Shown: one piece after another, positions 690-30,827 of the stretch
How positions within the stretch are numbered: position 1 is the first letter of the stretch
Layout: every line of letters starts with the position of its first letter
Notes under the pieces: model-generated
The model's database searches: none
The model's input: the letters and a program-made list of their open reading frames with translations, nothing else
Told to the model about the DNA's origin: nothing
Assembly (NCBI GenBank): GCA_015178975.1
Contig: WHVD01000135.1
Coordinates: 124,001-188,000, forward strand
Reading direction: 5' to 3'
Origin: Hysterangium stoloniferum
Lineage: Eukaryota; Basidiomycota; Agaricomycetes; Hysterangiales; Hysterangiaceae
DNA: 64,000 bases
Position numbers and translations under genes: made by a program

Positions 690-3600
690 AACCCTAAAAC
701 GATTTCCGAGGCATTACCGAGCTCTGTAGCTAGGATCCATGAAGTTTCTTCATCTGTACCTTCATAGCCAGCCCATTTGACCAAATAAAGTAATTTGCAT
801 GAGCGTCAGCGATTGTCAATTTTTGAGTCTAGGATTTCTGATATCTCGAATTCGGGTTCCCCATCAATAATCACGGGTGGAGGTGGTGGTTGTATGCGAT
901 CCGGTATATTGTTAGGAACACAAGGTTCTAACATAGATACATGAAATACCGGGTGCACTGCACGCATGTTGTCGGGGAGCCAAAGCGTCCATGAAAGCAT
1001 GCTGGCTTGTGCTATAACTTCAAAAGGACCTAAATATTTTTCAGAGAGCTTCTTAGAAGGTCTAGTAGTTCAGAAAAACTCGGCTTTAACGAATACTCGG
1101 TCTCCGATCTTGAAATCAGGAGGTGGAAGTCGGTTTTTATCCGCAGACCGTTGGTATCGTTCTTGAGCCATTGCGATAGTTTTACGAAGTTCTTGATGTA
1201 GCTCGTCGAGGTTTGTAACAAAGTCTTGAGCACGGGCGGATGCGAGATCGCATTCCGGGTGGATTGCGATGTTGGGGTTGTAGCCTTTATTTGCGAAGAA
1301 AGGCGAAATGCCAGTAGTGGCATTCGGTGCGTTGTTGTATGCGAATTCGGCCAGCGGTAGTAGTGATTTCCAATTGTCTTGTTGATAGTTGCAATAGACA
1401 CGGATGTATTGCTCCAAGGTTTGATTCATGCGTTCGGTTTGTCCATCGCCTTCTGGGTGATAGCCCGAAGTGAAATGTAACTTCATGTCTAGTGCTTTTC
1501 TGAGTGACCTAAAGAAGTGAGAGACAAACTCGGATCCGCGATCGGATGTGACATGCGACGGAACGCCATGCTTGGAAAATACATGGGTAACAAATAATTC
1601 AGCTAACTGTACAGATGTTATTGTGTCATATGTTGGAATGAAAATACTTTGCTTTGAGAGCCGATCCACAACAACTAGGATTGCTGTGTGACCTTCGGAT
1701 GCCGGTAGGTGCTCGATAAAATCCATAGAAATCGAGTTCCAAGGTTTTTCCGGTATCGGTAATTGTTTGAGTAGGCCATATGGTTTGTGTCGCTGTTATT
1801 TAGAGCGTAAACACGTAGTACAAGATTTACAATAGTGCTTAACAAAATCCCGGATGCCGGGCCATGTATATTCTCTTCTAATGAGTGAGAGGGTCTTATT
1901 GAGGCCGAAATGTCCTGAGATTGGGTGGTCGTGCTTATGTTGTAGGATTCGCAGCCGAAGGGTGTCGGAATCCGGTACATAAATGCGATTGTCAAGTCGA
2001 ATGAAACCTTGTGAGTCTAATGACCATCGGGGTTGATCGGGGTCGGACGGGTTATTGAGGTGTGCTTTGGTGACTGGGTCTAATGGAATTGCCGATAGTA
2101 TATCTTGATGTAACTTTTCGGTATCCATAAGGATAACACTTCGCAAGACTGGATGAATGAGGTAAGTGGCTCGGATAGATGCGGACAGTTGTTCCGATGA
2201 AAACATAGGTTTGAAATTATGCAGATTAACTGTGGCATAGTCACTACTCCCCTCTTTAGGATAGACGTCCCATCGTCTAGTCATAGCATCGGGTTTTCCA
2301 CCAAGGCGGCCGGGACGGAAGCGAATTACCATGTTGAAAGCGGAGAGGTATTCGGACCATCGAGCTTGTCGACGGGTGAGAAGTTTTGTGGTTGAAAAGT
2401 AAACTAAATTTTTGTGGTCTGTAATAACATCTACCGGGTGGGTCGAACCTTCCAAATAATGTCGCCATGTCTTGAAAGCTTCAAATATTGCGAGTAGTTC
2501 CTTATCGTGAACGTCATAGTTGAGTTCGGGCGCCAAAAATGTGCGAGACAGAAAAGCTACTGGGTGTACTTCACCATCAGTGTCCAGAATGGACAATATC
2601 GCGGCAAGCGCATAGTCCAAAGCATCAGTTTCCACGATGAGTTGAATGTCGGGTTTCCAGTGCGACAAAATAGGGGCGGATGTAAACGCACTTTTCAATT
2701 CCTGGAATGCCGATCGGCATTCGTCGGAGAAATTCCACGGGGTGTCTTTGCGAGTAAGACGAGTGAGCGGAACGGTAATTTTTGAGTAATTGTGAATGAA
2801 ACGGCGATAAAAATTGGCGAAGCCTAAAAAGGACTGAATATCTTTAACCTTTCGGGGTTCCGGCCAATCTTGAATGACTTGAATTTTAGCGTCGTCCATG
2901 CGGAGACCATCGGGTCCCATCATGAAGCCTAAGTATTCAACCGTGTCGACATCAAAAGAACATTTTTTACCATTCGCAAAAAGACCATGTTTTCAGAGTC
3001 TTCGGAGGACTTCACGGATGTGTTCATCATGAAGTGTAGGGTCTTCGGAAAAGATGAGGATGTCATCTAGGTACACAATGACAAAGACGTCAAGGAGGTC
3101 GGAAAAGACGTCGTTGATAAAACGTTGAAAGACCGACGGAGCGTTGGTGAGGCCGAAAGGCATTACTAACCATTCAAAGGAGCCATAGCGAGTGCGAAAA
3201 GCCATTTTCCATTCGTCGCCTTTGGCGATCTGAACCAAATGATAGGCGTGTTTGAGATCTATCTTTGTATAAATTTGGGCCTTCCGAGGGGCATCGAGTA
3301 AATCGGAGATTAATGGTAATGGGTACTTGTCTTTTCGAGTAATCGCGTTTAGTCCTCGAAAGTCAATGCAAAGTCGAAGGGAACCGTCTTTTTTCCGAAC
3401 AAATAGGACAGGGGCTCCATAAGGAGACTTTGAGGGTCGGATAAAACCTATAGCCAAATGTTCGTCCAAGAAATCTCGGATAGCCGATAATTCGGACTGC
3501 GAGAGAGGATAAACTGGGCCTAGGGGCGGATGTGAACCATCTTCAATATCAATTTTCAAATCGTAAGGCCTGTGAGGGGCGAGTCGATCAGCTTTTTGTT

Positions 3601-4330
3601 TACTGAAGACATCTGCAAATTCATGGTATTTTTTAGGAACACCTTCTAAATCTGCGATCGGTTCGGTCACCGGGGATGCAAAGCGACCGGTGACTTCGTC
3701 AACTTTAAGATTGACTGTAAATGCTCGGGAGCCGTCCAACTTGATGGCTCTCATAAAAGCTGCGGCGTTTATTAGAGAGACGGGCGGCGGAGAGCTCGGA
3801 TTTGCCACGGGGGCCGGAGGTGCTGTAGAGGCCATATTTGCCGAAACAGGGGGAAGCGGACCAGTCGTATCGGGTGCCGATGGGGTTCAGAAATGGATAC
3901 TGCCCAATACCCAATCAATCAACGGATTATAGCGGGTGAGCCAGTTATGTCCTAGAACCACGGAGCAACTCGAGTCCAACTGTGTTACAAAAAACGTAAC
4001 TGTCTGAAAGGTTCCACATGGGAACCGAAGTCGGAGTTTGCAGGCTTGCGAGATTACGGAGTTTGAGGTACCATCAAAAAGTCGGAGCGGAATCGGATCT
4101 ATTGCATAGGTTTTCAACTGTTTTTTTCGGGAAAAACTTGTATCTATAAAACAATGGGTTGAACCTGAATCTATGAGAGCTCAAAAAGTGAAACTCCCGA
4201 GAGGTTCCGAAGTAAGATTTATGAACAAAGAATTAGGATCATACAAGGCGGATGCGTTAAGATGACAATTTTCCGGTGTGCGAGGAGATTCAACGCAACT
4301 CTCCAACTGCACGGAATCCAGAGAGTTGCT
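690..4330 (-). pseudogene. pol of Ty3 element 1: protease, RT, RNase H, integrase, chromodomain, with in-frame stops
   Basis: The aspartic protease shows an [11 protein letters not shown]-type active site near 4170 and a VVLGHNWL block near 3950. The reverse transcriptase (2993-3835) has the VYLDD catalytic motif and the [11 protein letters not shown] block. RNase H and the zinc-binding integrase head with HH-CC spacing follow in 1796-2923, and the integrase core (HVTSDRGSEF, then a GHHPEGDGQTER-like block) lies in 1070-1726. The C-terminus reads KLLYLVKWAGYEGTDEETSW, a chromodomain. Stops break the frame at about 4180, 3886, 2992, 1797, 1070 and 825, several at positions where arginine is expected. 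The protein would otherwise integrate element cDNA and target chromatin. Confidence 0.92.
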
Positions 4331-5628
4331 TAATCTTTTTTCGACTCGGCAGCCGGCTTGGCCGGTTGTGAGGTCGTGGCCGTATTGGCCGATCGGGCTT
4401 TTGTGGCTTTTGGGCATGCAGCGACTCGGTGTCCGGGATCTGCACACAACAAACAAAGGTTGTTGTCCATTCGGCGTTGCTTTTCCTGTGGTAGGAGCTT
4501 GCCATCGGAGCCGAGTTTGCCAGTTAAGTCGGGTTTGTCTTTGTCTTGAGACTTATTCGACTGTTTGCCCTTGCCTTTTTTGTCGTTAGACCCTTTGTTT
4601 TCAGACTTCTTATCGGAAGTCGAGTTGCCAGTGTTATTGGTGTTTTGGTTACCAGACTTGTTGGCATTCTTGTTGTCCGATGATTTTTTGTCCGACGGGT
4701 TTTCGCGACTGATTTCCGAACGTCGTTCCCAGTATCGAGCGTCTGCGTTTTGGGCTTTCAGGCGCATGAGAGGGAGGGTTTTCGGCTTGCCGGTCTCTCC
4801 TTTGGAAACTTCATCTTTGAGGCGAGACGGAAGGCCAGAGTAAAACTGGTAACGGAGGGCCGAATCGCCCCAGTCGCAACGCGCGGCGAGGTTGTTGAAC
4901 TGGACAATATAATCGGTGATGCGCTGAGTGTCTTTCATTTTGAGATTAGAAAGCGCGGTTTCAGCATCGCCGGTTTGGTCATAGGGACCGAAGTTGGTTT
5001 CGAGTTCCTCGACAAAGGCATCCCAATCGTGGAGCCAATCGGGGTCTTCGGAGGTGAGGCCAGAAAATGCGGGTTCAAACCAGGCTGCTGCGGAATCCTT
5101 AAGGTATGAGAGTGCGAAGTTTACCTTTCGGTCATCCGTTGCGAATGCAGCCGGGCGGTCCCGAAAGTTGAATCGACATTGCATAAGGAATGTCAGCAAT
5201 TTCTTCGGGTTTGAGCCAGTAAATGGCTCGGGTTTGTTGACTCGGGTTTGCCCAGGTTCCTTTTCCTTGATATTGCTTTTAAGGAATTCATTAAGGGATC
5301 CTAGAGTACCTGAAAACAATTCCCATGTTTCTTCAGGGTCGAGAGCCGGTTTCTTCTTTGCAGACTTCTTGGAGCCACTAGCCTGAGGTTGGTCGCCATC
5401 CTCGGGTTCGTGTTCCGAAACTGGTTGATTGTTAATCTCCTCAGTTGCTTCGGGATCGGTTGCTTCAGTTACTTCTTCAGCATCGCCAGTAATCTCCACA
5501 AAGCAAGATTCTTCGGAGGTTTCTGGTAGCGGAGTTCTCTGAGTAGCTCGGGCTGTATACAGAAAAGGAGACTTGAGAGTGGAAGATTCTGCTTCGCCGC
5601 TAGGCTTGGCATTTTTCCTCGGAGGCAT
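4330..5628 (-). CDS. Gag polyprotein of Ty3 element 1 with CCHC zinc knuckle
   Basis: This is an open 432-codon frame starting MPPRKNAKP. It has an acidic N-terminus, a Retrotrans_gag-type central domain (residues about 105-270, with AAAWFEPA and the RITDYIVQFNNLAARCDWG region), a Lys/Asn/Ser-rich low-complexity linker, and one zinc knuckle near residue 395 (CLLCADPGHRVAACP, C-x2-C-x4-H-x4-C). Gag packages the element RNA in cytoplasmic particles. The start lies 38 bases from the LTR edge, as expected for the first gene of the element. It is the only complete open frame left in the element; the overlapping protease/pol frame is broken. Confidence 0.9.
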   Translation of the reverse strand: MPPRKNAKPSGEAESSTLKSPFLYTARATQRTPLPETSEESCFVEITGDAEEVTEATDPEATEEINNQPVSEHEPEDGDQPQASGSKKSAKKKPALDPEETWELFSGTLGSLNEFLKSNIKEKEPGQTRVNKPEPFTGSNPKKLLTFLMQCRFNFRDRPAAFATDDRKVNFALSYLKDSAAAWFEPAFSGLTSEDPDWLHDWDAFVEELETNFGPYDQTGDAETALSNLKMKDTQRITDYIVQFNNLAARCDWGDSALRYQFYSGLPSRLKDEVSKGETGKPKTLPLMRLKAQNADARYWERRSEISRENPSDKKSSDNKNANKSGNQNTNNTGNSTSDKKSENKGSNDKKGKGKQSNKSQDKDKPDLTGKLGSDGKLLPQEKQRRMDNNLCLLCADPGHRVAACPKATKARSANTATTSQPAKPAAESKKD

Positions 5629-6385: not shown

Positions 6386-8330
6386 AATACACACTGATAG
6401 TCCACCAAAGTTGGTCTACAGCCTGTCGCCGATATATGAAGTTTGGAGAAAAGAAACCTGGGGAGATTGTGCACTATGTAGCCGATGCCATGATGGAACC
6501 ATGGCTCATGGCCTGGTATCAAGGAGATCAGACTTGGATCGATGCCCTTACCCTAGAGAAATATCTGGAAGAGCTTGCAAGCATTACCCTCGAGAAAAAA
6601 TGGGCCCACATTATCAGGGAGAAAATCCTAACCACGTCACAAGGCAGCCGAAGATTCATTGATTGGAAGATGGAAATTGAAAATCTCAATGCAATCTTTA
6701 CTACTTCAGCAAAATCCTTCACATTATCCATGGTTGCCCTGAAGATACAGCTAGAGGCCAATCTTGACAAGGCACTCAAACGTAACCTTCTCGTTGAGCC
6801 TGTACTTTCAACAGAGCTTTCCGCATGGAGTAATGAAGTGAAAGAACGTGATGAGCGTGTTCGTGAACAACAAGAGTTAGTCCAAGAACAAATCTCAGCT
6901 AACAATGCTGCTCGTGCCCTCCGCCGCAATGAGAGGAAGGATTTAGCTTCCAGGCTATCTGATCCTCCTTCAGGTTCCTCTGCAAAAACAACTGGAACCA
7001 AACTTCCTAGGTTAACTGAAGAAGAACGGAAGCTCCTCCACGATCATGAAGGATGCACACGCTGCCGTGTCTTCTATCCTGGTCACCGCTCCGATTCATG
7101 CCCTATGAAAGCTAACAATTCATGGCCAGATGCTGCTACCTACAAAACACTCACCATATCAATGGCTCGTGCTGCTGCACCTCATGTCACAGCTGGCCTT
7201 GCCATGGCCAACATCGAAGAATGCTTAGATGAGGACACTGACACGTATGTCACTTCTCCTGACACACCAACACTCCCCTTTACTGTACCACACCTCTATG
7301 CACCAATAGAGTTAACCGGTCCACTCATCTCTGAATTCCCCATCTGTGTAAAAGCCCTCATTGACATAGGATGTCCCTCTACAGTGATTAGCGATGCCCT
7401 TGCTTCACGATTAGGATTACATCGATTTCCTCTACCCAAGGAGGAAGATAATCTATCATCACTATCAGATATGCCATTGAGTTGCAGAGAGTTCGTAAGG
7501 TTAAAGGTTACTTCAGGGAATGGGGCATGGCAATCAGGAGTTTTTAAGGCTAAAATACATGTTGGATTACCAGTGCCACTCATACTAGGAATGTCATTTC
7601 TTTCTCCACATCACATAGTAATCGACACCAATAAGCGGACTGCATGCGACACATGGGACAACTATGACATTGCCAACCCTGTGCCTCCAAAACCAAGAAT
7701 GCTACCAGTCCACCCCACCAAGCCACCGACTCCCCCACAGGTCTCACAGACCAACACGAAATCAGAACCACCACTTGCAGGATATTTGATGCCAGCTCCT
7801 ATTATGGCTGCTGTACGTGAATGCATCGAGACCCTGGCATTACAGGAGATGTTAGCAAAAAAGGATGCAGAATTGAAGAAAATCTTCACGGATCGATTCC
7901 CACTCAGACTGCCAGATGTGACTACTCTACCCACCCACATCTACCACCGCATCCGACTCAAGGACCCATCCAAGGTTACAACAGGACGGGGATATTCTGC
8001 TCCCAAAAAGTTCCATGATTCATGGAAGATCCTCCTCGAAGAACACTTGGCTGCTGGGTGAATACAGCCATCATCCTCAGAATATGCATCACCAGCCTTC
8101 TGTGTACCAAAGTACCGCAATGGTGTGCCGGTCTTTGACATCCCCCCACGATGGGTAAATGACTATTGAGAGCTTAACAAGAACACTGTGCGGGATAAGT
8201 ACCCACTCCCTCGAGTGGATGATATACTGTCCGATTGTGGCCAGGGTATGATATTCGGGAAACTAGATATGACAAATTCATTCTTTCAGACCAGAGTGCA
8301 CCCTGACGACATTCACCTCACTGCAGTCCA
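6386..8330 (+). pseudogene. Second retroelement: gag-protease-RT polyprotein, 5' and 3' truncated
   Basis: From the element 1 LTR to 8061 the frame is open, but the ATG at 6340 lies inside that LTR and is fortuitous. Recognisable parts are a gag body with a charged coiled region (about 6800-6960), a Cys/His cluster CTRCRVFYPGHRSDSCPM, an aspartic protease-like core with ALIDIGCPSTVIS and ILGMSFLS, and the start of a reverse transcriptase (DKYPLPRVDDIL, KLDMTNSFFQ). Two stops, at 8059 and 8167, stand where arginine is expected (CGA to TGA). The RT ends abruptly at about 8330 where a minisatellite begins. The missing 5' end should lie left of position 1, beyond element 1. Confidence 0.85.
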
Positions 8331-8913
8331 CGCCTCTGTGACCATCACGCGCCTCTGTGACCGTCACACGCCGCTGTGACCGTCACACGCCGCTGTGACC
8401 GTCACACGCCTCTGTGACCGTCACACGCCTCTGTGACCGTCACACGCCTCTGTGACCGTCACACGCCTCTGTGACCGTCACACGCCTCTGTGACCGTCAC
8501 ACGCCTCTGTGACCGTCACACGCCTCTGTGACCGTCACACGCCTCTGTGACCGTCACACGCCTCTGTGACCATCATGCGCCTCTGTGACCGTTGCACGCC
8601 TCTGTGACCGTCACACGCCTCTGTGACCGTCACACGCCTCTGTGACCATCGCGCGCCTCTGTGACCATCGCGTGCCTTTGTGACCATCGCGTGCCTCTGT
8701 GACCATCACGCGCCTCTGTGACCATCACGCGCCTCTGTGACCATCATGCGCCTCTGTGACCGTTGTGCGCCTCTGTGACCGTTGCGTGCCTCTGTGACCG
8801 TTGCGCGCCTCTGTGACCATTGCGTGCCTCTGTGACCGTTGCACACCTCTGTGACCATTGCGCGTCTTTGTGACCATTGCGTGCCTCTGTGACCGTCACG
8901 CGCCCTTGTGACA
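8331..8913. repeat. 19-bp minisatellite, about 31 copies, with palindromic core
   Basis: The unit CGCCTCTGTGACCGTCACA is repeated head to tail. Each unit contains the odd palindrome TGTGAC-C-GTCACA. The left two thirds are almost uniform, while the right end drifts by C/T and G/A changes (for example CCATTGCGT). The array directly follows the truncated RT of the second retroelement. Because 19 is not a multiple of 3, any open frame across it yields a 19-residue peptide repeat, which I regard as an artefact. Confidence 0.95.
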
Positions 8914-12889: not shown

Positions 12890-15800
12890 CTACAATGTTG
12901 TCAATAGTCCGTGTCTATCCATTTCCAGGATCAAGGCCCGAATGCAATCAGAAGGGATATCCCCCATGAAACGCAATATGAAGGATAAAATATGCGCAAC
13001 TTCAAGAATGGTATGGCTTACAAAAGCTACAAAGATTGGCATTCATAACAACTAGAAGAATAGAAACACTTACCATACTTCAAGAGGGTTTCAATCAGTG
13101 TGCTACGATGTAGCAAATGTGGTTCAGGCATATAAAAGTGGCACATGGCAGAGAGGACTATCGGCAATTTGAGGTGGGTAAAGTAACCTGCAAGACGATG
13201 AATGGAGTCAATGCTGCGAAGAATTAAAGCATACCATATTTAGCAAAAACCGCAAACAATTTCACACCAGCTAAAACAAGCTGATCTTTGTCGGCATTAA
13301 CAAGGGATGCACAGTGATGTTCTAGATTACACCTAGTAATGCTGACACGAAGGGAATCTTTGACAATATCGGTGAAAAGAAACTTTGCATTTGCGTGTCA
13401 AGCCACGCACCATGGGGTGCTAGCTTAACAAGTAAGTCGACAACTTGTAGTTGGCTGAGTAAATATGAACCCTCCAAAAGGTTAACAATACTAGGAATAG
13501 CACACGCGATGGCAAAGTGAAATTCAGCTGTGGTGAAATGTCAGCTGGATTTCTATTCCATTATCAGGCAATTCACTTTGGTCAGAAAGTTTGGTGAGTG
13601 CCGATACTCCTTTGGAACGGACGGAGTAACTTGAGTCCTTTAAAACGGCAACAATTGAGGGAATGGCACCAGAAATGGAAGCTCGAAATTCGGCTGTAAT
13701 CAACTCTCAGATGAATTCCCATCACATTGGGAGGCACAGCACCTTGCTCTGAAAGTTTGGCCAGTGCTACTACTCCGTTGGATCGAACGTCTTCGTCAGA
13801 GTCCTTCAAAAGGGCAACAATTGAGGGAATGCCATCGATAATGGCAGATCGAAATTCGGCTGTGATCAAATCTTAGTTAAATTTGCATCACACATTATGA
13901 GGTACCGAACGTTGCTGTGAAAGCTTGGCCAGTGCCGATACTCCGTTGGATCGAACAGAGTACCTGGAGTCCTTCAGAAGTGCAACAATGTCGGGAAGGG
14001 CACCCAGAATAGCAGCTCGAAATTCGGCTGCGGTCAAATCTCAGCTGGATTCCCGTCACATTGTGAGGCACATCACCTTGTTCTGAAAGCTTGGCCAGTG
14101 CCACTACTCCGTTGGATCGAACGTCTTCGTCAGGGTCCTTCAAAAGGGCAATAATTAAGGGAATGTTATCGATAATGGCAGGTTGAAATTCGGCTGTAAT
14201 CAAATCTCAGTTAAATTGCCATCACACATTATGAGGTACCAAACGCTGCTGTGAAAGCTTGGCCAGTGCCGATACTCCGTTGGATCGAACAGAGTGCCTG
14301 GAGTCCTTCAACAGTGCAACAATGTCGGGAAAGGCACCCAAAATGGCAGCTCGAAATTCGGCTGTGGTCAAATCTCAGCTGGATTCACTTCACATTATAA
14401 GGTAACGCACCTTCTTCTGAAAGCTTGGCCAGTGCCGATGCTCCGTTGGATCTAACAGAGTGCCTGGAGTCCTTCAAAAGTGCAACAACGGCGGGAATGG
14501 CACCCAAAATGGCAGCTCGAAACACGGCTGTGATCAAATCTCAGCTAGATTTTTACCTCGTATCGAGGTGCCCCACCGAGTTCTGAAAGCTTGGCCAGTG
14601 CTGACACTCCTTGGGATCGAACGTTTTCGTCAGAGTCCTTCAAAAGTGCAACAATGTCGGGAATGGCGACCGAAATGGCAGCTCGAAATTCGACTGTGGC
14701 CAAATCTCAGCGGGATGCCCATGACATAAAGTACCGTACCTTGTGCTGAAAGCTTTACTAGTGATGAGACACCTTTGGATCGAACGGAGTAACTAGAGTC
14801 CTTCAAAAGTACAACCATGTCGGGAATGGCACCGATGATGGAAGCTCGAAATTCGGCTGTGATGAAATCTCAACGAGACTTCTATCCCATTTTGAGATAC
14901 CCCACCTTGCTCTGAAAGGTCGACCAGTGAAAATGCTCCATTGGATCGAACATCTTCATCAGAGTCCTTCAAAAGTGCAACAATGTCGGGAATGGCACCG
15001 ATAATGGCAGCTCGAAATTTGGCTGTGGTCAAATCTCAGGTGGATTCCCATAACATTATGAGGTATCGTACCGTTCTTTGAAAGTTTTCCCAGTGCTGAT
15101 ATTCCGTTGGATCGAATGAAGTAACTCGAGTCCTTCCAAAGTGCAATAATATCGGGAATGGCAGCTCGAAATTCGGCTGTGATCAAATCTCGGCTAAATT
15201 TCCATCCCATTTTGAGGTATCGCACCTTGCTCTGAAAGGTTGGCCAGTGACAATGCTCCATTGGATCGAACAACTTCGTCAGAGTCCTTCAAAAGTGGGA
15301 CAATGTCGGGGATGGCACCCGAAATGGCAGCTCGAAATTCGGCTTTGATCAAATCTCAGCTAGGTTTCCATTTTATTTTGAGGTACCACACCTTGCTCTG
15401 AAAGCTTGGCCAGTGCTGATACTCCTTTGGATCGAACGGAGTAATTGGAGTCCTTCAAAAGCGCAACAATATCGGGAATGGCAACGATAATGACAGTTCG
15501 AAATTCCGCTGTGACCCAATCTCAGCTAGATCTCCATTCCATTTTGAGGTAATGCACCTTTATCTGAAAGCTTGGCCAGTGCTGATATCCCTTTGGATCG
15601 AACGGCTTCGTCAGAGTCCTTCAAAAGTGCAACAATGTCGGGAATGGCACCCGAAATGGCAGCTCGAAATTTGGCTATGGTCAAAACTCAGCTGGATTCC
15701 CATCCCATTATGAGACACTCCACCTTGCTCTGAAAGCTTAGCTAATGCCGATACTCCGGTAGATCGAACGTGAGAGTCAGAGTCCTTCAAAAGGGCAACA

Positions 15801-18800
15801 ATGTTGGGAATGGCATCCGCAATAGCGGTTCGAAATTTGTCTGCATACCCATGAATTATGGCAGCTTACGAGGAGTTGGTGCACTTACCAAAAATGTGGA
15901 AAGTAATGACCGCCTGTAGTAGAGCCAACTTTCCTCCTGTCACTCTGAGGTTGAATCTGGGTAATGTAAGGTGAAAATTCCGTGCTTCAAAGGGGTGTGG
16001 AAATCAAATAGTGAATGATATATCTCCTTTGGTTACCTACATGTCATTGTTATCTGTCGAAGGATCTTGATGCCTTCATGACGCCAAATAATATTGGTAC
16101 TCAGTACAAGCTCTATAGTTGACCACAAGCGGGGGGTCAAGAATTGGGAGATGTGTTGAATGTCATGATTATTGATTGTATCACTGTTATAGGGATCAGT
16201 ATGGCATGGAATAAATGGGGTCTGGCCACGAAGTGGAATTGAAGGTGACTTGGGCAACGGTAGGTGGATGCTGTCAGCCAAACCAATGACAGCGAGTATG
16301 TGACCCCTGACAGGAGCAAGGAGCTTCCCTACGGAGATTTCAGCAAAATGCTTTGTGAAGTATTATTGGATTACCTTGCTCGAACAGCTTGGCTAGCACA
16401 GATGCTGCGCTTGAGCATATGTCATCGTCAGAATCATTCAAAAGTGCAACAATCTCGGGAATGGCAGCTCGAAATTCCGCTACGATGAAATCTCAGCTAG
16501 ACTTCCATCCCATTCGAGGTAGCGCACCTTGCTCTGAAAGGTTTACCAGTGACAATGCTCCATTGGATCGAATATATTGGTCAGAATCCTTCAAAAGTGC
16601 AACAATTTCGGGAATGGAACCAGAAATGGCAGCTCGAAACTCGGCTGCGATCAAATCTCAGCTAGATTTCCATAACATTATGAGGTACCACACCTTGCTG
16701 TGAAAGCGTGGCCAGTGCCAATACTCCGTTGGATCGAATGTAAGAGTCAGAGTCCTTTAAAAGTGTAACAATGGCGGGCATGGCATCCGAGATGGGAGCT
16801 TGAAATACGGCTGTGGTCAAATGTCAGCGGGATTCCCATCACATTATGAGGCATATGACCTTGCTCTGAAAGGTTGGCCAGTGTCGATACTCCGTTGGAT
16901 CGAACATAAGAGTGAGAGTCCTTCAAAAGTGCAACAATGGTGGGAATGGCACGGATAATGGCAACTCGAAAGTCGGCTACGGTCAAATCTCACATGGATT
17001 CCCCCCACATTATGACATATCGTACCTTGCTCTGAAAGCTTGGCCAGTGCTGATACTCCGTAGGATCGGACAAAGGAGTTAGAGTCCTTCAAAAGTGCAA
17101 CAATGTTGGGAATGACACCGACAATAGCAGCTCGAAATTCGGCTGTGGTCAAGTCTCAGCTGGATTCCCTTCACATGATTACCTACTGTACCTTGCTTTA
17201 AAAGCTTGGCCAGTGTCGAAACTACGTTGGATCGAACGGCAGAGTCCGGGTCCTTCAATAATGCAACAATGTCGGGAATGGCACCCGAAATGGGAGCTCG
17301 AAATTCGGCTGCGGTCAAATCTCAGCTGGGTGCCCACTACATTATGAAGCACCGCACCTTGTTCTGAAAGATTGGCGAGTGCCGATACTCCGTTGGATCG
17401 GATGTAAGAGTCAGAGTCTTTCAAAAATGCAACAATGTCGGGAATGGCACACGAAATGGGAACTCTAAATGCGGCTGTGGTAAAATCTCAGCTGAATTCC
17501 CATCACATTGAGATAGCGCACCTTGCTGTGAAAGCTTGGCCAGTGCCGATGCTCCGTTGGATCGGACAGAGTACTTGGAATCTTTCACAGATGTAACAAT
17601 GTCGAAAAGGGCGCCCGAAATGGCAGCTCGAAACTCGGCTGAGGTCAAATCTCACCTGGGTTCGCATCATATTATGAGACACCGCACCTTGCTCTGAAAG
17701 CTTGGCCAGTGCCGATACCCCGTTGGATCGGACAAAGTACCTGGAGTCCTTCAAGAGTGCAACAATGTCGGGAAGGGCATTCGAAATGGGAGTTCGAAAT
17801 TCAGCTACGGTTAAATCTCAGCTGGATTCCCCTCACATTTTGAGTTACCACACCTTGCTCTGAAAGCTTGGCCAGTGCCGATACTCCGTTGGATCGAACA
17901 GAGTACCTGGAGTCCTTCAAAAATGCAACAATGGCAGGAATCGCACCCGAAATGGCCGGTCGAAATTCGGCTGTGGTCAAATTTCAGCTGGATTCCCATC
18001 ACATTATGACGTACTGCACCTTGCTCTGAAAGTTTGGCCAGTGCCGATGCTCCGCTGGATCGAACAGTGTACCTGGAGTCCTTCAAGAGTGCCACAATTT
18101 TCGGAATGGCACCAGTAATGGTAGCTTGCAATTCAGCTGTGATGAAAAATCTCAGCTAGACTTCCATCCCATTTCGAGATACCGCACCTTGTTCTGAAAG
18201 CTTTCCCAGTGCTGATACTCCTTTTGCTCGGATGGAGTAACCAGAGTCCTTCAAAAGTGCAACAATGTTAGGAATGGCATCCGAAATGGCAGCTCGAAAT
18301 TCGGCTATGATTCAATCTCAGCTGGATTCCCATCCCATTATGATCTATCGCACCTTGTTCTGCAAGCTTGGCCAGTGCCATTACTCCGTTGGATCCAACA
18401 TCTTCGTCAGACTCCTTCAAAAGGGAAACAATATCGGGAATGGCAGCGATAATAGCAGCTTGAAATTCGGCTGTGATCAAATTTCAACTAGATTTCCATC
18501 CCATTTCGAGGTATCGCACCTTGCTTTGAGAGCTTGGCCAGTGCTGATACTCCTTTGGATCGAACCAAGTAACTGGAGTCCTTCAACAGTGCAATAATTC
18601 CAGGAATGGCCCCGATAATGACAGCTCGAAATTCAGCTGTGATCCAATCTCAGCTAGATTTCCATCTCATTTTCAGGTACCGCACCTTGTTCTGAAAGCT
18701 TGGACAGTGCTGATACTCCGTTGGATCGAACAGAATACCTAGAGTCCTTCAAAAGTGCAACAATGTCGGGAATGGCACCCGAAATGGCAGCTCGAAATTC

Positions 18801-21376
18801 GGCTGTGGTCAAATCTCAGCTGGATCCATCTCACATTATGAGGTACCGTACCCTGCTCTGAAAGCTTGGCCAGTGTTGATATTCCTTTCGATCGAACGGC
18901 GTAACTAGAGTCCTTTAAAAGTGTAACAATCGCGGGCATGGCATCCGAGATGGGAGCTCGAAATACGGCTGTGGTCAAATCTCAGTTGCATTCCCATCAC
19001 ATCATGAGACATAGGACCTTGCTCTGAAAGGTTGGCCAGTGTCAATACTCCGCTGGATCGAACGCAAGAGTCAGAGTCCTTCAAAAGTGCAACAATGTCG
19101 GGAATGGCAACCGAAATGGGAGCTCGAAATATGGCTGTCACCAAATCTGAGTTGCATTGCCACAACATTATGATGTACCGCACCTTGCTCTGAAAGCTTC
19201 GCCAGTGCCGATACTCCGTTGGATCGAACGTCTCCGTCAGAGTCCTTCAAAAGTGCAGCAATTCCGGGAATGGCACCACCGATGCCAGCTGGGAATTTAG
19301 CTGAGAATTACTTTATATTATATCGTACTCCGTTTCCACTTGGGCACTCTCTTACCACATTCCAATAGTAATCGTTCTACGGGATCAACTGTTTCCCCAA
19401 AGGTGCTTATGCTCTGTTGTACCAGTTTCTTTATCCACTCTTTTTCTTTTCCTGTCGCGATAATCTGTGAGTTACTTGTCGCTTGATTCGTAGTTGAAGG
19501 GCAGGGCAGTTTACCTGCCATTACACCCTTATTTTCGAGCATTTTCCGGCAATCCTCTGTTCATCAGTTATTTTCTGTGCCGGAGTCACAGAAAAAGTCC
19601 TTACTAAGGCCCCAATATGCCAGTATTATTGCTTCGCAGCTTGCATGCAATTCCTCCTTTTGTGAGAATGCTCCATCAATAGCGGCCATCATCAATGCTC
19701 TTCGCTCGTAGGGTGCTGCACCCATAGTGACCAAATTATCAATGTGTGGGCCTGTCGACACCGCTAGGTTACCCTCATCCATGTTGACCCGAATACCAAT
19801 ATGAACCGCCCACCCCAATGTCTTCAAGCAAGGCTCTAAACTATCCAACCGATGTAAAGGTCTCCCGACCTGTAGGAGAGTCGTGAACGGGATAAGGTAC
19901 TCGTTGTCTATCGGCTTGTCTGTTCGCGGCGATAGGAATCGCGACATTGAAAGAAGGGAAACTTCCGCAAGCTCTGCATCACGTAAGGTGACGACGCCTG
20001 CGGTAATGTCAAAGCAGCTCTCCAAGATTTTGCATATTTTGTCCGTAACGGTTCGTCGGCACAAGGCAATCCGCAACTGTTCAGATTGTTTTGCACCTGC
20101 TACAGCCCTAAGCGCCTCCTTGACTGTCTCCTCCGATATGGATTTTACAATTACCCATGCCAAGATATTAGCCTCAAGTTCGGCCTGATGGGGTTTGCTA
20201 TGCGTTTCGACCAAGAGTCGAGAAGAGCCTTCTAGCCATTCGGAAATGCTGAATGCATACGCCCTTATCGGTGAAAAAGACCGAGAGTAGTCTGATGTGA
20301 ACGTCTCATACTTTGCGCTTGCAGAGACGTCTGGGAAAAAGCGTGACATAGTCGTTTGAAAGGGACAGGCGGGGGAAAAAAGGGGGAAAAGGGTGCCGAG
20401 TATATATAGTGCAGCTGCAAATATGGTCAAAAACAGCATAAGAACGCCTAGAGCAACGCTGTTATTCCACGTGAATAAGACGAGGCCTGCGAAGAAAAGG
20501 AAAAGAGCTAGTTGGATCAAAAGCGGGATCCCAGTAACAACTGACTCCAGACGCCACTGTTGTGCTTTGATGACACGAAAGAGACGTTGACATGCATCAC
20601 TTGAGCGACTTCCTGGGGAAACAGGAACATACTTCGCCAGCCATTCCCTTGCAAGTACAGCACAAAGCGCACTGAAGAGAGTCAGAGCGAGACTACTGAA
20701 CCACAAGTAGTTAACAATAAGAGATGATTTGGAGACTTCAAAAGGCTGAGAGGGAGTCGTAGCGAACTGATTTTGAAGTGCCTGAAGGATTTCCTGAACA
20801 GGATCTACCTGCAAATCCTTCCTACTCTCGATTAGGAAAGCAGTAAGAATCGCTCCAAACAAGCCGGCCTGCGACACTATTAATTTAATATCCTATGAAG
20901 GAGAACGTATTCAACAGACAAATATAAGAAGCTCGTCGACACCGACTTGCAATGAATTGGCAAATTCTTTGTCCTCTTTTTCTGTTTCCTTTAGATATAA
21001 CGACCATATGGTTGAATCAGAGTGAAGATGCCTGCTATAGGGGTTATCGTGCTCGCTTTCTAGGCCATTACCGCGACTGGATGCCGCCTTGGTTGATGAG
21101 GGAACCGTGGTAGACAAAGGTTTACGGTTGGTCGTTCCTTGTTCCCCTGTTTACGTGCCTCAGTTTAGAATAAGTTTAAACTTTGTTTATACCTGAGATA
21201 ACTGGTATCTGTGATTCAGCGCAGTTAAGGTCTCGTGCATACTGCGAGGACATGGTTTGACTCGCGTCAGTTGGGCGCTTAAACATCCCCGTTGATTGTG
21301 ATCCCATCCCATCAGCGTCACTTAAACTTACTCCCCATGCGCTGTGCCGTTCCCCTAGACTCCCTCTTAAAACCAT
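12890..21376 (-). CDS. DUF6535 membrane protein with 33 HEAT/ARM repeats, 42 exons
   Basis: Start ATG 21376, stop 12890. Leading exons: 21193-21376, 20920-21146, 19605-20868, 19356-19556. Then come 18 repeat exons (16375-19300), two spacer exons (16037-16328, 15889-15956), 15 repeat exons (13411-15840) and C-terminal exons 13235-13357, 13074-13187, 12890-13026. The total is 6447 bases, exactly 2149 codons, with no internal stop found. The DUF6535 part (residues about 75-260) has the LIF-AGLFGAILTAFLIES junction and about four membrane spans (LALTLFSALCAVLAREWLA, LALFLFFAGLVLFTW, MLFLTIFAAALYILG). The repeat consensus is AEFRAAISGAIPDIVALLKD followed by SDxxVRSNGVSALAKLSEQ. DUF6535-ARM architectures are known in mushrooms with unknown function. 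I infer a membrane-anchored protein with a solenoid binding surface. The array homogeneity suggests concerted evolution. Confidence 0.9.
13411..15840 (-). repeat. Exon-intron tandem array, downstream block: 15 HEAT/ARM repeat exons
   Basis: Exons begin (plus-strand left edges) at 13411, 13577, 13743, 13911, 14077, 14245, 14411, 14577, 14740, 14906, 15072, 15226, 15392, 15558 and 15724. All are 117 bp except the one at 15072 (105 bp, lacking four residues after AEFRAAI). Intervening introns are about 46-51 bp and resemble one another, with donor GTGCGGTACC-like and acceptor TGATCACAG-like ends. The leftmost exon is the most diverged. A dimer periodicity of 334 bp is visible between 13743 and 14411. 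Confidence 0.93.
15889..16328 (-). other. Non-repeat spacer exons splitting the HEAT/ARM array
   Basis: Exon 16037-16328 (292 bp) reads GKLLAPVRGHILAVIGLADS and continues to RQITMTC. Exon 15889-15956 (68 bp) reads FNLRVTGGKLALLQAVITFH. They join in frame: phase 1 from the repeat exon at 16375 through a 46-bp intron, phase 2 across an 80-bp intron, and phase 1 into the repeat exon at 15724. I do not recognise the segment. It could be the old C-terminus of one repeat gene fused to a second repeat block. Confidence 0.75.
16375..19300 (-). repeat. Exon-intron tandem array, upstream block: 18 HEAT/ARM repeat exons
   Basis: Plus-strand left edges: 16375, 16528, 16694, 16860, 17026, 17192, 17358, 17522, 17688, 17854, 18020, 18188, 18354, 18520, 18686, 18852, 19018 and 19184. 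All are 117 bp except the first listed (105 bp, with the same four-residue loss as the exon at 15072). The spacing is 164-168 bp apart from that exon. Every exon begins and ends in phase 1, so any number can be skipped without shifting the frame. Confidence 0.93.
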
Positions 21377-26234: not shown

Positions 26235-29078
26235 TAAAAGTTTAATAATTTTTTTGAAAATGAAAGTAAAGCGTGAAAAAACATAAGAATCAAAGTCCGC
26301 AGAAAATCCACTTAAGGACTTGAAAGACATATCAGAACCTGTAAAAGCAAAGAGAGACATAGGGCGACAGGAAATAATGAGAATGAGTCCAATCGTAACA
26401 CAGGGTCTGCAGAGTGTGGTCAGAGAGACAATAGTGGTCTGGGTTTGAGCGGGTAAGCTGTATGAAAGTCAGTAATGATTTCCGTGGCATTACTGAGTTC
26501 TGTGGCCAAAATCCATGAAGTCTCTTCATCGGTGCCCTCGTAACCTGCCCACTTGACTAAGTAAAGAGTTTACAAGTGTGTCAATGCTTATCAATTTTTG
26601 AATCTAAAATTTGTGAGATTTCAAACTCAGGTTCTCTGTCAATAATGACTGGAGGAGGTGGATATTGCACATGATCTGGGATAGTGTTAGCAGTACAAGG
26701 TTCTAATATAGAAACATGAAATACCAGGTGTACTGTGTGCATGCTATCCAGAAGCCATAGGATCCAAGAGACTGAACCTACTTGTGTGATAATTTCAAAT
26801 GGACCTAAATATTTTTCAGCAAGCTTTTTTGATGGACAGATAGTCCGGAAGAATTTAGCTTTGACAAAAATGTGATCGCCAATCTTGAAGTTGGGTGGCA
26901 GAATCCGGTGTTTGTCCGCTGAATGTTGATATTGCTCTTGGGCAGACTTTATTGCAGTCCGGAGTTCCTCATGGAGCTAGTGGAGGTCTGTGGTGAACTC
27001 TTGAGCACGAGCAGAGGCGAGATTTCATTCTGGATGTACTGTAATATTTGGATTATATCCTTTATTTGCAAAAAACGAGGAAATGCCAGTAGTGGCCGAG
27101 GGTGCATTGTTGTAAGCAAATTCTGCAAGTGGTAATAAGGATTCCCAATTGTCCTGTTGATAATTGCAATATACATGGAGATATTGTTCCAATGTCTGAT
27201 TGACGTGTTTGGTTTGTCCATCACCTTCTGGGTGATGTCCGGATGTGAAATGTAATTTCATGTCCAAGGATTTCCTGAGGGATCTAAAGAAGTGAGATAC
27301 AAACTCTGATCCTCAGTCGGAAGTTATGTGGGATGGAACTCTGTGCTTGGAAAATACATGGATAATAAAAAGTTCCGCTAACTGCATGGATGTAATTGTA
27401 TCATGTGTAGGGATGAATATACCTTGTTTTGAGAATCTGTCAACAATGACTAGAATGGCGGAAAAATCTTTGGAATCTGGTAGGTGTTCAATGAAATCCA
27501 TAGAGATAGAATTCCACGGGTGTTCTGGTAGTGGGAGTTGTTTCAAAAGGCTGTATGGCTTGTGTCGCTGAGATTTCGAGTGGGGACAAGTAGTGCAAGA
27601 TTTACAATAGTGCTTAACGAATCCATGGAGTCCGGGCCAAGTATATTCTCTTCTTATTAATGATAAAGTTTTGTTGTACCCGAAATGTCCTGAGAGTGGA
27701 TGATCATGTTTGTACTGAAGGATCCTGAGGCAGAGGCCATCGGAGTCTGGTACATAGATGTGATCGTCAAGTCTAATGAAACCATGCTGATCAAGAGACC
27801 ACCAGGGTTGATTGGGGTCCACAGGATTGTCAAAGTGAGCTTTAGTAATTGGGTCTAGTGGAATTGCCGATAGAATATCTTGATATAACTTCTCAATATC
27901 TATAATGATAATTCCACAGACAATGGGATGGACGAGGAAAGTTGCATGGACCGATGCGGTAAGTTGCTGATTTGTGAAAATAGGTTTCAGGTTGTGTGGA
28001 TTTACTGTGGCATAGTTGTTGCTCCCCTCTTTAGGATAGACATCCCATCGTCTAGTTAAAGCGTCAGGTTTGCCACTGAGACAGCTGGGTTGAAAATGGA
28101 TAGTCATATTGAAGGTGGATAGGTATTCAGACCTGCGGGCCTGCTGACAGGTCAAAGGTTTTGTGGTAGAAAAGTATTCCAGGTTTTTGTGATCTGTTAC
28201 AATGTCAATCGGAGTTCCCGAGCCTTCCAAATAGTGTCGCCACATTTTGAAAGCTGAAAAAATTGCCAGGAGTTCCTTATCATGAACATCGTAATTGAGC
28301 TCTGCTCTGGTGAAAGTCTGGGACAGAAAAGCCATGGGGTGGACTTCTCCATTGGAGTCCTGGATAGACAAAATGGCTCCAAGTGCATAGTCCGAGGCAT
28401 CCATTTCAACAATGAGTGGGAAATCCAGTTTCCAGTGTGACAGGATTGGAGCTGAAGAACAAGAATTTTTTAAAAGATTGAAAGCTTTTTGACACTTATC
28501 ATTAAAATTCCATGGAGTATCCTTACACATAAAATGGGTAAGGGGAACCATGATGTTGGAATATCTGCAGATAAACCATCTGTAAAAATTGGCAAAGCCG
28601 AGGAAGGATTGGATATCTTTAACTTTTCGGGGTTCCGGCCAATCTTTGATGACTTGCACTTTAGTTTCATCCATGCGGAGTCCGTCGGTCCCATTATGAA
28701 GCCCAGGTATTCCACAGAGTCCATGTCAAAAGTACATTTTTTACCATTCGCGAATAAACCATGTTGTCTGAGTCTCCGGAAAACTTCACGGACTTGGTTG
28801 TCATGTTCTGTGGGATTCTCAGAGTAGATAAGAATGTCATCCAAGTAAACAATGATGCATACATCGAGCATGTTGGAGAAAATGTTGTTGATAAAACGTT
28901 GAAAAACAGATGGAGCATTGGTGAGTCCAAAGGGCATCACCAACCACTCAAAGGCCCCATAGTGGGTTCTAAAAGTGGTTTTCCATTCATCACCCACAGA
29001 GATCCAGACCAAATGATAGGCATGTTTAAGGTCTATCTTGGTGTAAATCTGGGCATTCCGTGGAGCATCGAGCAGATC

Positions 29079-30133
29079 TGTCAGGAACCGGAAACCCCGC
29101 CGGCCTCCGGGCCCCCGGACCCCATCCTACATGCTCCCGACCCTCTATATTGTATAGTAACAACCGGAGTTCCCACGGGACCCTGTACATCAACTCGTTT
29201 ATGCCTGACTCTCTGTACGCACCCCACCTGTCTGCACCTAACCCTCCATGTCTCATACACCAGTCCTCGGACTCCTCCGGACTCCGGACTCCACTCTATG
29301 TACACCCGACACTCTGTGTCTTATGTACCAGTCACCGGACTCCGACCGGACTCCTGGAACCCCTCTAACAGAGCATAGAACTCCGCTCCTGTTATCTGTC
29401 TCTGCATCTCACACACCAGTCATCAGAAAACCCACCGGACTCCACCGGACCTCCTGCACATCAAGCCTGTCTATACCCGACACTATCTTGTGCACCAAGT
29501 CACCGGACTCCGACCGGACTTCCGGAACCCCTCTAACTGAGCCCCACTCCAGTTATGGTTAAATGATCTGTCATGATTCATTCTCCGCTCCCGTTCCGTT
29601 CCGTCCCTAATTCCCAGTTTAGTATTTACCTGTTTTGTTTTATGTTTAATAGTTCTGCCTCTCATTAATACCGGATTTGGTATTATTACATTTCACAGTC
29701 TATATAAGTCTGCTATATTCATGTACTTAGAATCCAGTTTCAATCTTGAACTAGTTTTCCCCCGAACAAGTTTGATCCTTGAACAGTCTCTAGTCCTCTT
29801 GTCTGTCTGCACACTCGATTCCCGGAACTCCCATGGGAACTCCGGAATCTATATCTTTCTGTATGCATTCTGTCAGCTCGAAATATGGACACCCGAATGA
29901 GTGTACGAGGGCGCAGCCTATAAGCTGAAGCCAAGTCCATCTCAGTCGTATCACCAGACTTTCTGGTAATTATTCTGATATCACCGTTCCTTGTACTAAT
30001 AATCCCCGGAGCTTTCCCGGGACCTATTGCCCGGGGACTCCATGGGACTATTCCCGGAAGCAAGTGTGTGTTCAGAATAGTTACCGGAAACCTCCGCGGG
30101 ACTATCTGTGGAGCTTTGTTCGGGAACTTAACA
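29079..30133 (+). mobile_element. Solo LTR, 1055 bp, with target duplication AGATC, opposite orientation to host element
   Basis: It starts TGTCAGGAACC and ends GGGAACTTAACA, and is flanked by AGATC at 29074-29078 and 30134-30138. Removing it restores the RT sequence of element 2. A TATA box (GTCTATATAAG, about 29700) and the conserved CAGCCTATAAGCTGAAGCCA block near 29917 indicate plus-strand sense. It contains long internal direct repeats (about 29310-29375 and 29482-29550). Confidence 0.93.
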
Positions 30134-30827
30134 AGATCAGATATAAGTGGAAGTGGATACTTATCCTTTTTGGTGACAGCATTGAGTCCTCTGAAATCAA
30201 CACATAGTCTAAGGGATCCATTCTTTTTCTTGACAAACAGAACAGGTGCTCCAAAAGGAGACTTTGAGGGTCTGATAAAACCTATGGACAATGTCCATCC
30301 AGGAAATTGCGGATTGCGGAAAGTTCTGTGGACAAGAGTGGGTAAATATGTCCTAGGGGTGGCTGGGCGCCATCTTCGAGATCGATTTTTAAGTCATATT
30401 CTCTGTGGGGTGGAAGCTGGTCAGCTTTTCGCTTGCTAAAAACATCTGCGAAGTCATGATATTTCTCCAGGATGCCTTCTAGGTCAGTGGCTTGCTCAGA
30501 TGCGGATACTGGGGTTGAAAAATGTACAGTTGCTTCATCAATTTTTAAGTTGATAGTGAATGCCTGGGACCCATCCATTTTTGTAGCCCTAGTAAAAGCT
30601 ACAGCATTAATCAGAGAAATAGATGGAGGTGCCGTGGGTTCCGGGGAACTCATGGGTGCCATAGGGATCACAGGAGTCCTCAAGACTGCAGGTGCTGGGA
30701 AGGCCATGGGTGCCGTGGAGGCTGTGTCGGGCACAGTTTCCTCGGCTGCTGCAGGAGTCCAGAATGTTATACTGTTAGCTATCCAGTCAATCAACGGATT
30801 GTAGTGGGTAAGCCAGTTGTGTCCTAG

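What the first reader, a model, noticed from the sequence alone, without database searches (positions are those of the whole stretch)
12890..21376. A 42-exon gene in which 33 near-identical one-repeat exons encode a HEAT/ARM solenoid behind a DUF6535 membrane domain
Seen: 33 exons, 31 of exactly 117 bp and two of 105 bp, each one 39-residue repeat, all phase 1-1, no stop in any, and the whole model summing to 2149 codons. Known: DUF6535 and ARM/HEAT repeats co-occur in mushroom proteins of unknown role, and fungal recognition receptors with highly similar repeats (WD40, TPR, ankyrin NLRs) vary in copy number and take part in non-self recognition. Inference: this could be a membrane-anchored recognition protein that varies by exon gain and loss, a parallel to NLR repeat domains but with the exon as the unit of variation.
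Basis: partly seen in the sequence, partly recalled or inferred. Interest (0 to 1): 0.88.

Follow-up and report, generated by a model that had tools for sequence, protein, structure and literature searches.

The report
Fungal receptor-like genes with repeat exons
This fungal gene builds a long coiled protein from 33 small interchangeable exons, one per protein repeat, and belongs to a family of about 40 or more such genes in one genome whose repeat numbers differ and whose likely binding surface varies fastest, which suggests, but does not prove, a recognition system that changes by gaining, losing and swapping exons.

Summary
The repeat exons are real: 33 minus-strand exons (31 of 117 bp, 2 of 105 bp, all phase 1-1, no stop), each one 39-residue HEAT repeat, behind a DUF6535 domain with four predicted membrane helices. 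Paralogues correct the model: start 21253 not 21376, exon 2 27 nt longer, one exon split by a 63-nt intron; 43 exons, 2094 aa. The repeats here are not near-identical (units 75% identical on average).

The gene is one of a family. At least 41 related 5' ends lie in the genome; 38 have a matching C-terminal exon downstream, implying about 13-48 repeats. Close paralogues differ by whole repeats. Three positions on helix B change about twice as fast as the exon-wide neutral rate, while the core is conserved (local tests are weaker). A Mycena homologue varies on the same face. One near-identical array sits behind another N-terminus.

Reading: a NOD-less, membrane-anchored recognition repertoire diversified by repeat-exon turnover. 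Function, strain variation and splicing are untested. Precedents: Podospora NLR repeats and brown-algal LRR exons.

The parts
21193..21253 (-).
   Evidence: ATG shared with the paralogues shown in the alignment; sequence upstream diverges; model
20920..21146 (-).
   Evidence: donor and LLIF|AGLFGA junction as in paralogues and homologues
19605..20868 (-). Exon 3, rest of DUF6535 with predicted membrane helices, then an ARM-like helical stretch
   Evidence: Pfam E 1.6e-35; hydropathy; model; VIA-align to beta-catenin rows on the later part
19515..19556 (-). Exon 4, linker
   Evidence: splice borders compared with paralogues
19356..19451 (-). Exon 5, linker, set apart from exon 4 by a 63-nt intron
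   Evidence: intron length varies in paralogues by non-multiples of three
16375..19300 (-). Repeat block A: 18 HEAT-repeat exons, 17 of 117 bp and one of 105 bp (16479-16375), introns 47-51 nt
16041..16328 (-). Hinge exon 1 (288 bp, non-repeat)
   Evidence: gap of like size and aligned sequence at this place in paralogues; a non-repeat gap also in P0001
15889..15984 (-). Hinge exon 2 (96 bp, non-repeat)
13411..15840 (-). Repeat block B: 15 HEAT-repeat exons, 14 of 117 bp and one of 105 bp (15176-15072)
13694..14361 (-). Tandem duplication of a two-exon, two-intron block: 14361-14028 and 14027-13694, 90.7% identical
13235..13357 (-). C-terminal exon 1
   Evidence: aligned in paralogues
13074..13187 (-). 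C-terminal exon 2
12890..13026 (-). C-terminal exon 3, conserved cap and stop
   Evidence: 58 matches to its last 43 residues in the genome; aligned

Best explanation
The gene encodes a membrane-anchored, receptor-like HEAT solenoid, one of about 40 or more paralogues in this genome. DUF6535 forms a four-helix membrane anchor or output module near the N-terminus; an even number of membrane helices would put both ends on one side, most simply the cytosol (inference). The solenoid is two repeat blocks joined by a hinge and closed by a conserved cap. Its repeats vary most at the start of helix B (positions 22, 23, 27), the face through which HEAT-like proteins bind partners. Every repeat is a symmetric phase-1 exon between short, alike introns, so unequal crossing-over or gene conversion between 166-bp units can add, remove or swap repeats without breaking frame or fold. 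SHOWN: exon anatomy, family size, whole-repeat differences between paralogues, position-specific variability with a conserved core, one array behind another N-terminus. INFERRED: membrane location, ligand recognition, a defence or self/non-self role, recombination as the cause. NOT TESTED: transcripts, strain variation, output.
For: 33 intact symmetric exons. Lower bounds of 41 related 5' ends and 58 C-terminal exons; 38 pairs with about 13-48 repeats. Five close paralogue pairs (exon-3 pS 0.024-0.084) have 2, 7, 10, 24 and 11 repeats without partner. A repeat's nearest relative is in its own array in 42% of cases against 4.6% expected. Positions 22 and 23 exceed the array's synonymous level in 23 of 23 arrays, 27 in 20 of 23; nonsynonymous changes at 23, 27, 22 are 2.23, 2.02, 1.95 times the exon-wide neutral rate and at 16, 10, 17, 32 only 0.16-0.24 times. 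Mycena albidolilacea P0001 varies most at 26, 23, 22, 21. alphaRep binders vary positions of the same spacing and bind through the concave face. Exon 3 is under purifying selection, median pN/pS 0.48. C179: 18 near-identical units behind another N-terminus with hydrophobic helices.
Against: Local omegas at 22, 23, 27 are only 1.21 (p 0.14), 1.31 (p 0.035) and 0.77; positions 3, 14, 24, 8 and 5 score higher by that measure. Site-count tests find no significant excess in six arrays, C179 included (p 0.30). Overall omega is 0.83. This gene's own fastest positions are 12, 23, 7, 21. The helix-B face periodicity test gives p 0.07. Exon and intron distances are uncoupled in 7 of 10 arrays, against simple whole-unit copying. 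No transcripts, no strain data, no ligand.
Confidence: 0.55

Rival explanations
1. Relaxed constraint: the protein is a long scaffold. Repeat number drifts by slippage and unequal crossing-over, and exposed residues vary because nothing constrains them; no selection for new binding faces.
For: Overall repeat omega 0.83; local omegas near 1 at positions 22, 23, 27; no significant site-count excess; synonymous changes are also somewhat raised at 22, 23, 27 (49, 56 and 61 against a mean of 42).
Against: Nonsynonymous changes at three helix-B positions are about twice the exon-wide neutral rate, and 23 is among the top five positions in 21 of 23 arrays; a homologue in another species varies on the same face; exon 3 is clearly constrained.
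Confidence: 0.25
2. Variation acts mainly through splicing: symmetric exons are skipped in mRNA so that one gene makes solenoids of many lengths; copy number in the genome is secondary.
For: Every junction from exon 4 on is phase 1, so any run of repeat exons can be left out in frame. Brown-algal LRR exons and human NLRP3 LRR exons are alternatively spliced (passages of PMC11378527, and PMC6642158).
Against: Phase identity follows from tandem duplication alone; no transcript data are held.
Confidence: 0.1
3. The family is largely decaying duplicated DNA spread with retroelements, and copies such as this one have no function.
For: Retroelement-like ORFs lie on both sides in the window. Some copies have a stop or a partial array: L045 exon 3, L040 before the repeats, L033 and L044, C-terminal exons at C512:396441 and C79:288412.
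Against: All 33 repeats of this gene are intact and 579 repeat exons across 23 arrays remain spliceable against 21 hits that are not; exon 3 pN/pS 0.48; core repeat positions strongly conserved.
Confidence: 0.1

Closest known systems
Fungal NLR (STAND) proteins with highly conserved repeats, e.g. Podospora HNWD genes and ANK/TPR/HEAT NLRs (PMC4986451: passages and section 17 seen; PMC12222747: passages seen)
   Same: Repeats alike within a gene, number differing, a few variable positions on the concave face, several N-terminal domains for one repeat type; one Podospora case is listed as NACHT/TPR(HEAT)
   Different: No NACHT or NB-ARC match here; a DUF6535 membrane domain instead; one exon per repeat; strain polymorphism is shown there and not here
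Brown-algal ROCO genes with shuffled LRR exons, and the NB-TPR genes mentioned with them (PMC11378527: passages seen)
   Same: One repeat per exon, one intron phase, diversifying sites reported on the concave side, candidate immune role
   Different: LRR exons of 72 bp in phase 2 with a ROC-COR GTPase; here HEAT exons of 117 bp in phase 1 with DUF6535, in a fungus
Human NLR genes with LRR exons, e.g. NLRP3 (PMC6642158: passages seen)
   Same: Frame-preserving repeat exons that can be skipped
   Different: LRR not HEAT, NACHT-bearing NLRs; I found no statement there of within-gene homogenised arrays of this size (passages only)
alphaRep designed HEAT-like binders and the PP2A PR65/A scaffold
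   Same: Sequence matches to the repeats (PR65/A beta E 9.5e-14, alphaRep E 8.5e-10); alphaRep varies residues of the same spacing
   Different: alphaRep is engineered and PR65/A is a fixed scaffold (recalled). The register 22 to 18 was inferred from spacing and a recalled VR motif, not aligned
Mycena albidolilacea 'armadillo-type protein' P0001
   Same: DUF6535, 39-residue repeats (23 detected), a hinge gap and a like C-terminus
   Different: Named only by fold in the record; its exon structure could not be seen

Membership tests
DUF6535 (PF20153) proteins | Pfam match over the curated cut-off | tested here: met
   127.7 bits against 23.9
HEAT-repeat proteins | HEAT repeat profile match and helical solenoid | tested here: met
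   PF02985 66.6 bits against 23.5; PR65/A matches; the P0002 model is a solenoid
Fungal NLR (STAND) | NACHT or NB-ARC nucleotide-binding domain | tested here: not met
   No such match in the N-terminal 850 residues, hinge and C-terminus; repeats 7-16 and 20-31 were not scanned
Fungal NLR (STAND) | Repeats over 85% identical within a gene (high internal conservation) | tested here: not met
   Mean 66% in protein for this gene; the C179 array is far more uniform but is another gene
Fungal NLR (STAND) | Repeat number differs between strains | not testable with these tools
   No strain data; differences shown only between paralogues
Exon-per-repeat receptors (brown-algal type) | One repeat per exon, all of one phase | tested here: met
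   33 of 33 repeat exons phase 1-1; 579 in 23 arrays
Exon-per-repeat receptors (brown-algal type) | Diversifying selection at ligand-facing sites | tested here: inconclusive
   Excess over the exon-wide rate, weak or absent by local omega and site counts; recombination not modelled
Exon-per-repeat receptors (brown-algal type) | LRR with ROC-COR, or TPR with NB domain | tested here: not met
   HEAT repeats with DUF6535; no such domain in the parts scanned
Exon-per-repeat receptors (brown-algal type) | Alternative splicing of repeat exons | not testable with these tools
   No transcripts held

The most novel reading that the evidence does not exclude
Mushroom-forming fungi hold a large NOD-less receptor repertoire (about 40 genes or more, roughly a thousand interchangeable HEAT exons in this genome) in which the spliceable exon is the unit of diversification, in the germ line and perhaps also in mRNA, and in which the repeat array is a module joined to more than one membrane domain.
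Probability: 0.35. Interest if true: 0.92.

Novelty: new variant of a known kind. Interest (0 to 1): 0.72.

Why it matters
Fungal non-self recognition is known mainly from ascomycete NLRs. If this reading is right, mushrooms have a recognition system of another build: no nucleotide switch, a membrane domain, and exons that can be gained, lost or swapped without breaking the frame. It would be a natural counterpart of designed HEAT-repeat binders and a fungal parallel to the brown-algal exon receptors. It also makes a direct test possible: do strains that reject each other differ in these arrays? DUF6535 occurs in one paper of the searched library, in a table row.

Tried and rejected

Rows dropped before counts: units not exactly 117 bp (29 of 579) and duplicate readings of the overlapping loci L030/L034 in the selection tests. 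L029 was fetched but has no array. Distance-based repeat numbers disagree with direct counts where the hinge is lost or doubled (L035, L040); L047 was counted only as far as the fetched sequence reaches; two 5' ends on C79 share one C-terminal exon. Genome search counts are lower bounds, since only the best candidates are scored. Protein searches scored only candidates sharing most words.

Full report
WHAT IS THERE. Its gene on the minus strand has 33 repeat exons, 31 of 117 bp and 2 of 105 bp, all phase 1-1 with AG/GT borders and no stop. Introns between neighbouring repeats are 46-51 nt. The array is in two blocks (18 and 15 repeats) split by two non-repeat exons and closed by three C-terminal exons.

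CORRECTIONS FROM PARALOGUES. The ATG at 21253 lines up with an ATG in the eleven paralogues shown, and the sequence before it diverges; the DNA match to paralogues ends at 21283. Exon 2 runs on to LLIF (20920), as in the homologues. A 63-nt stretch in the old exon 4 has intron borders and lengths that differ in non-multiples of three. The result is 43 exons, 6285 nt, 2094 aa with one stop at the end. No transcript was available. 'Near-identical' is too strong for this gene: exon+intron units are 75% identical on average, repeats 66% in protein. A two-exon block is tandemly duplicated at 90.7% identity (14361-14028 and 14027-13694).

THE PROTEIN. In the first 850 residues of the draft protein DUF6535 scores 127.7 bits and HEAT 66.6 bits; no NACHT or NB-ARC match appears there, in the hinge or in the C-terminus (the middle repeats were not scanned). 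Hydropathy gives four membrane stretches, at 93-111, 151-169, 210-228 and 234-252. A model of the Mycena venus homologue P0002 (pLDDT 71.6, 12 sequences) has long helices at 47-94, 124-157, 184-213 and 215-240 and then a helical solenoid; Foldseek places it with importin alpha, designed armadillo proteins and other solenoids. By sequence the repeats match PP2A PR65/A and alphaRep chains. In that model repeat positions 22-36 form helix B. A model of the window's exon 3 (pLDDT 71.7) gave no Foldseek match at E 0.001.

A FAMILY, NOT ONE GENE. DUF6535 gave 75 matches in the genome. The 5' DNA of the gene matched 41 places including itself, none an allele, and the last exon 58 places; these are lower bounds. 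Of the 41 5' ends, 38 have a C-terminal exon within 15 kb downstream on the same strand (two share one); the distances imply 12.6 to 47.9 repeats, median 26.9. Direct counts agree in the simple cases: 25, 25, 27, 27, 32, 32 against 24.9, 24.9, 26.9, 26.9, 31.8, 31.9 (L036, L037, L038, L042, L043, L046). L035 and L040 disagree because the hinge is lost or doubled. Nineteen of 20 fetched DUF6535 loci hold an array; L029 does not. With C179, C550, C97 and the window there are 23 arrays with 579 spliceable phase-1 repeat exons, 550 of exactly 117 bp; 21 further hits could not be spliced under my rule.

EXON TURNOVER. Five close paralogue pairs (exon-3 pS 0.024-0.084) were aligned repeat by repeat: 2, 7, 10, 24 and 11 repeats had no partner (exons missed at odd splice sites add to these numbers). 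A repeat's closest relative lies in its own array in 42% of cases against 4.6% expected. In C179, 18 units are nearly identical, introns included, and a few types recur in mixed order. Against simple unit copying, exon and intron distances correlate in only 3 of 10 arrays at 20 or fewer of 500 permutations.

WHICH RESIDUES CHANGE. Over 550 repeats, positions 22 and 23 exceed the array's synonymous level in 23 of 23 arrays, 27 in 20 and 8 in 18. On within-array trees, nonsynonymous changes at 23, 27, 22 and 8 are 2.23, 2.02, 1.95 and 1.45 times the neutral expectation from the exon-wide synonymous rate; at 16, 10, 17 and 32 they are 0.16-0.24 times. Without seven close paralogues the same four positions lead. 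Against this: local omegas at 22, 23 and 27 are 1.21, 1.31 and 0.77, and positions 3, 14, 24, 8 and 5 score higher by that measure; site-count tests in six arrays show no significant excess, C179 included (p 0.30); overall omega is 0.83; the helix-face periodicity test gives p 0.07 and this gene's own top positions are 12, 23, 7 and 21. The trees ignore recombination. In the Mycena albidolilacea protein the most variable positions are 26, 23, 22, 21, 7, 30 (15 ungapped repeats from 22 anchors; entropy correlation with this genome 0.45, p 0.004). alphaRep libraries vary positions 18, 19, 22, 23, 26 and 30, and one solved complex binds through the concave face (PMC3754942, passages). With register 22 to 18 the spacing is the same and the three fastest positions here fall among those six (20 of 8436 triples by chance, a post hoc comparison). 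The register rests on spacing and a recalled VR motif, not on an alignment. Exon 3 is under purifying selection (median pN/pS 0.48).

MODULARITY AND SPREAD. The C179 array is not among the DUF6535 places; before it stands an Ala-rich stretch and two hydrophobic helices without a Pfam match. P0001 of Mycena albidolilacea has DUF6535, 23 detected repeats and a hinge gap. P0047 of Mycena venus has DUF6535-like sequence and repeats of 41 residues at about 50% self-identity; a Hysterangium protein (P0013) has six related repeats. Absence elsewhere is not shown, since the protein searches were capped.

HOW IT PROBABLY WORKS. Symmetric exons separated by short alike introns let recombination add, drop or swap repeats without loss of frame; residues at the start of helix B change fastest; the membrane domain would anchor or signal. 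This is the working principle of Podospora NLR repeat domains (PMC4986451 section 17; PMC12222747 passages) and of brown-algal LRR exons (PMC11378527 passages), without membership in either. Strain variation, splicing, location and ligand are untested, hence confidence 0.55.

VERDICT. Observation confirmed with corrections; interpretation partly supported; a new variant of a known kind.

Noticed in passing
C179:619650-625422 (from L022-L028): 18 nearly identical 166-bp exon+intron units behind an Ala-rich stretch and two hydrophobic helices; no DUF6535 and no Pfam match there. The repeat module seems to have more than one N-terminal partner.
   Followed up: partly
L040 (C212:667100-677007): Three repeat blocks of 11, 15 and 11 with two hinges, and a TGA just before the repeats in the alignment; probably a non-functional copy.
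   Followed up: partly
L035 (C212:747800-757718): A single block of 21 spliceable repeats, the hinge missing.
   Followed up: no
repeat introns of 23 arrays: 371 introns of 49 nt share a strong consensus across genes, including a CTGAC branch-like motif near the 3' end; splice constraint or homogenisation.
   Followed up: no
window 8329-8912: Tandem array of a 19-bp unit, 30.7 copies, 91% matches.
   Followed up: no
window 1070-5628 and 27313-30794: Retroelement-like ORFs (integrase, reverse transcriptase and gag-like by eye) on both sides of the gene.
   Followed up: no
window 43197-44923, 54848-55495, 60418-61212: ORFs with Pfam matches to DUF1365 (two pieces), cytochrome P450 and acyl-CoA oxidase C-alpha1.
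   Followed up: no
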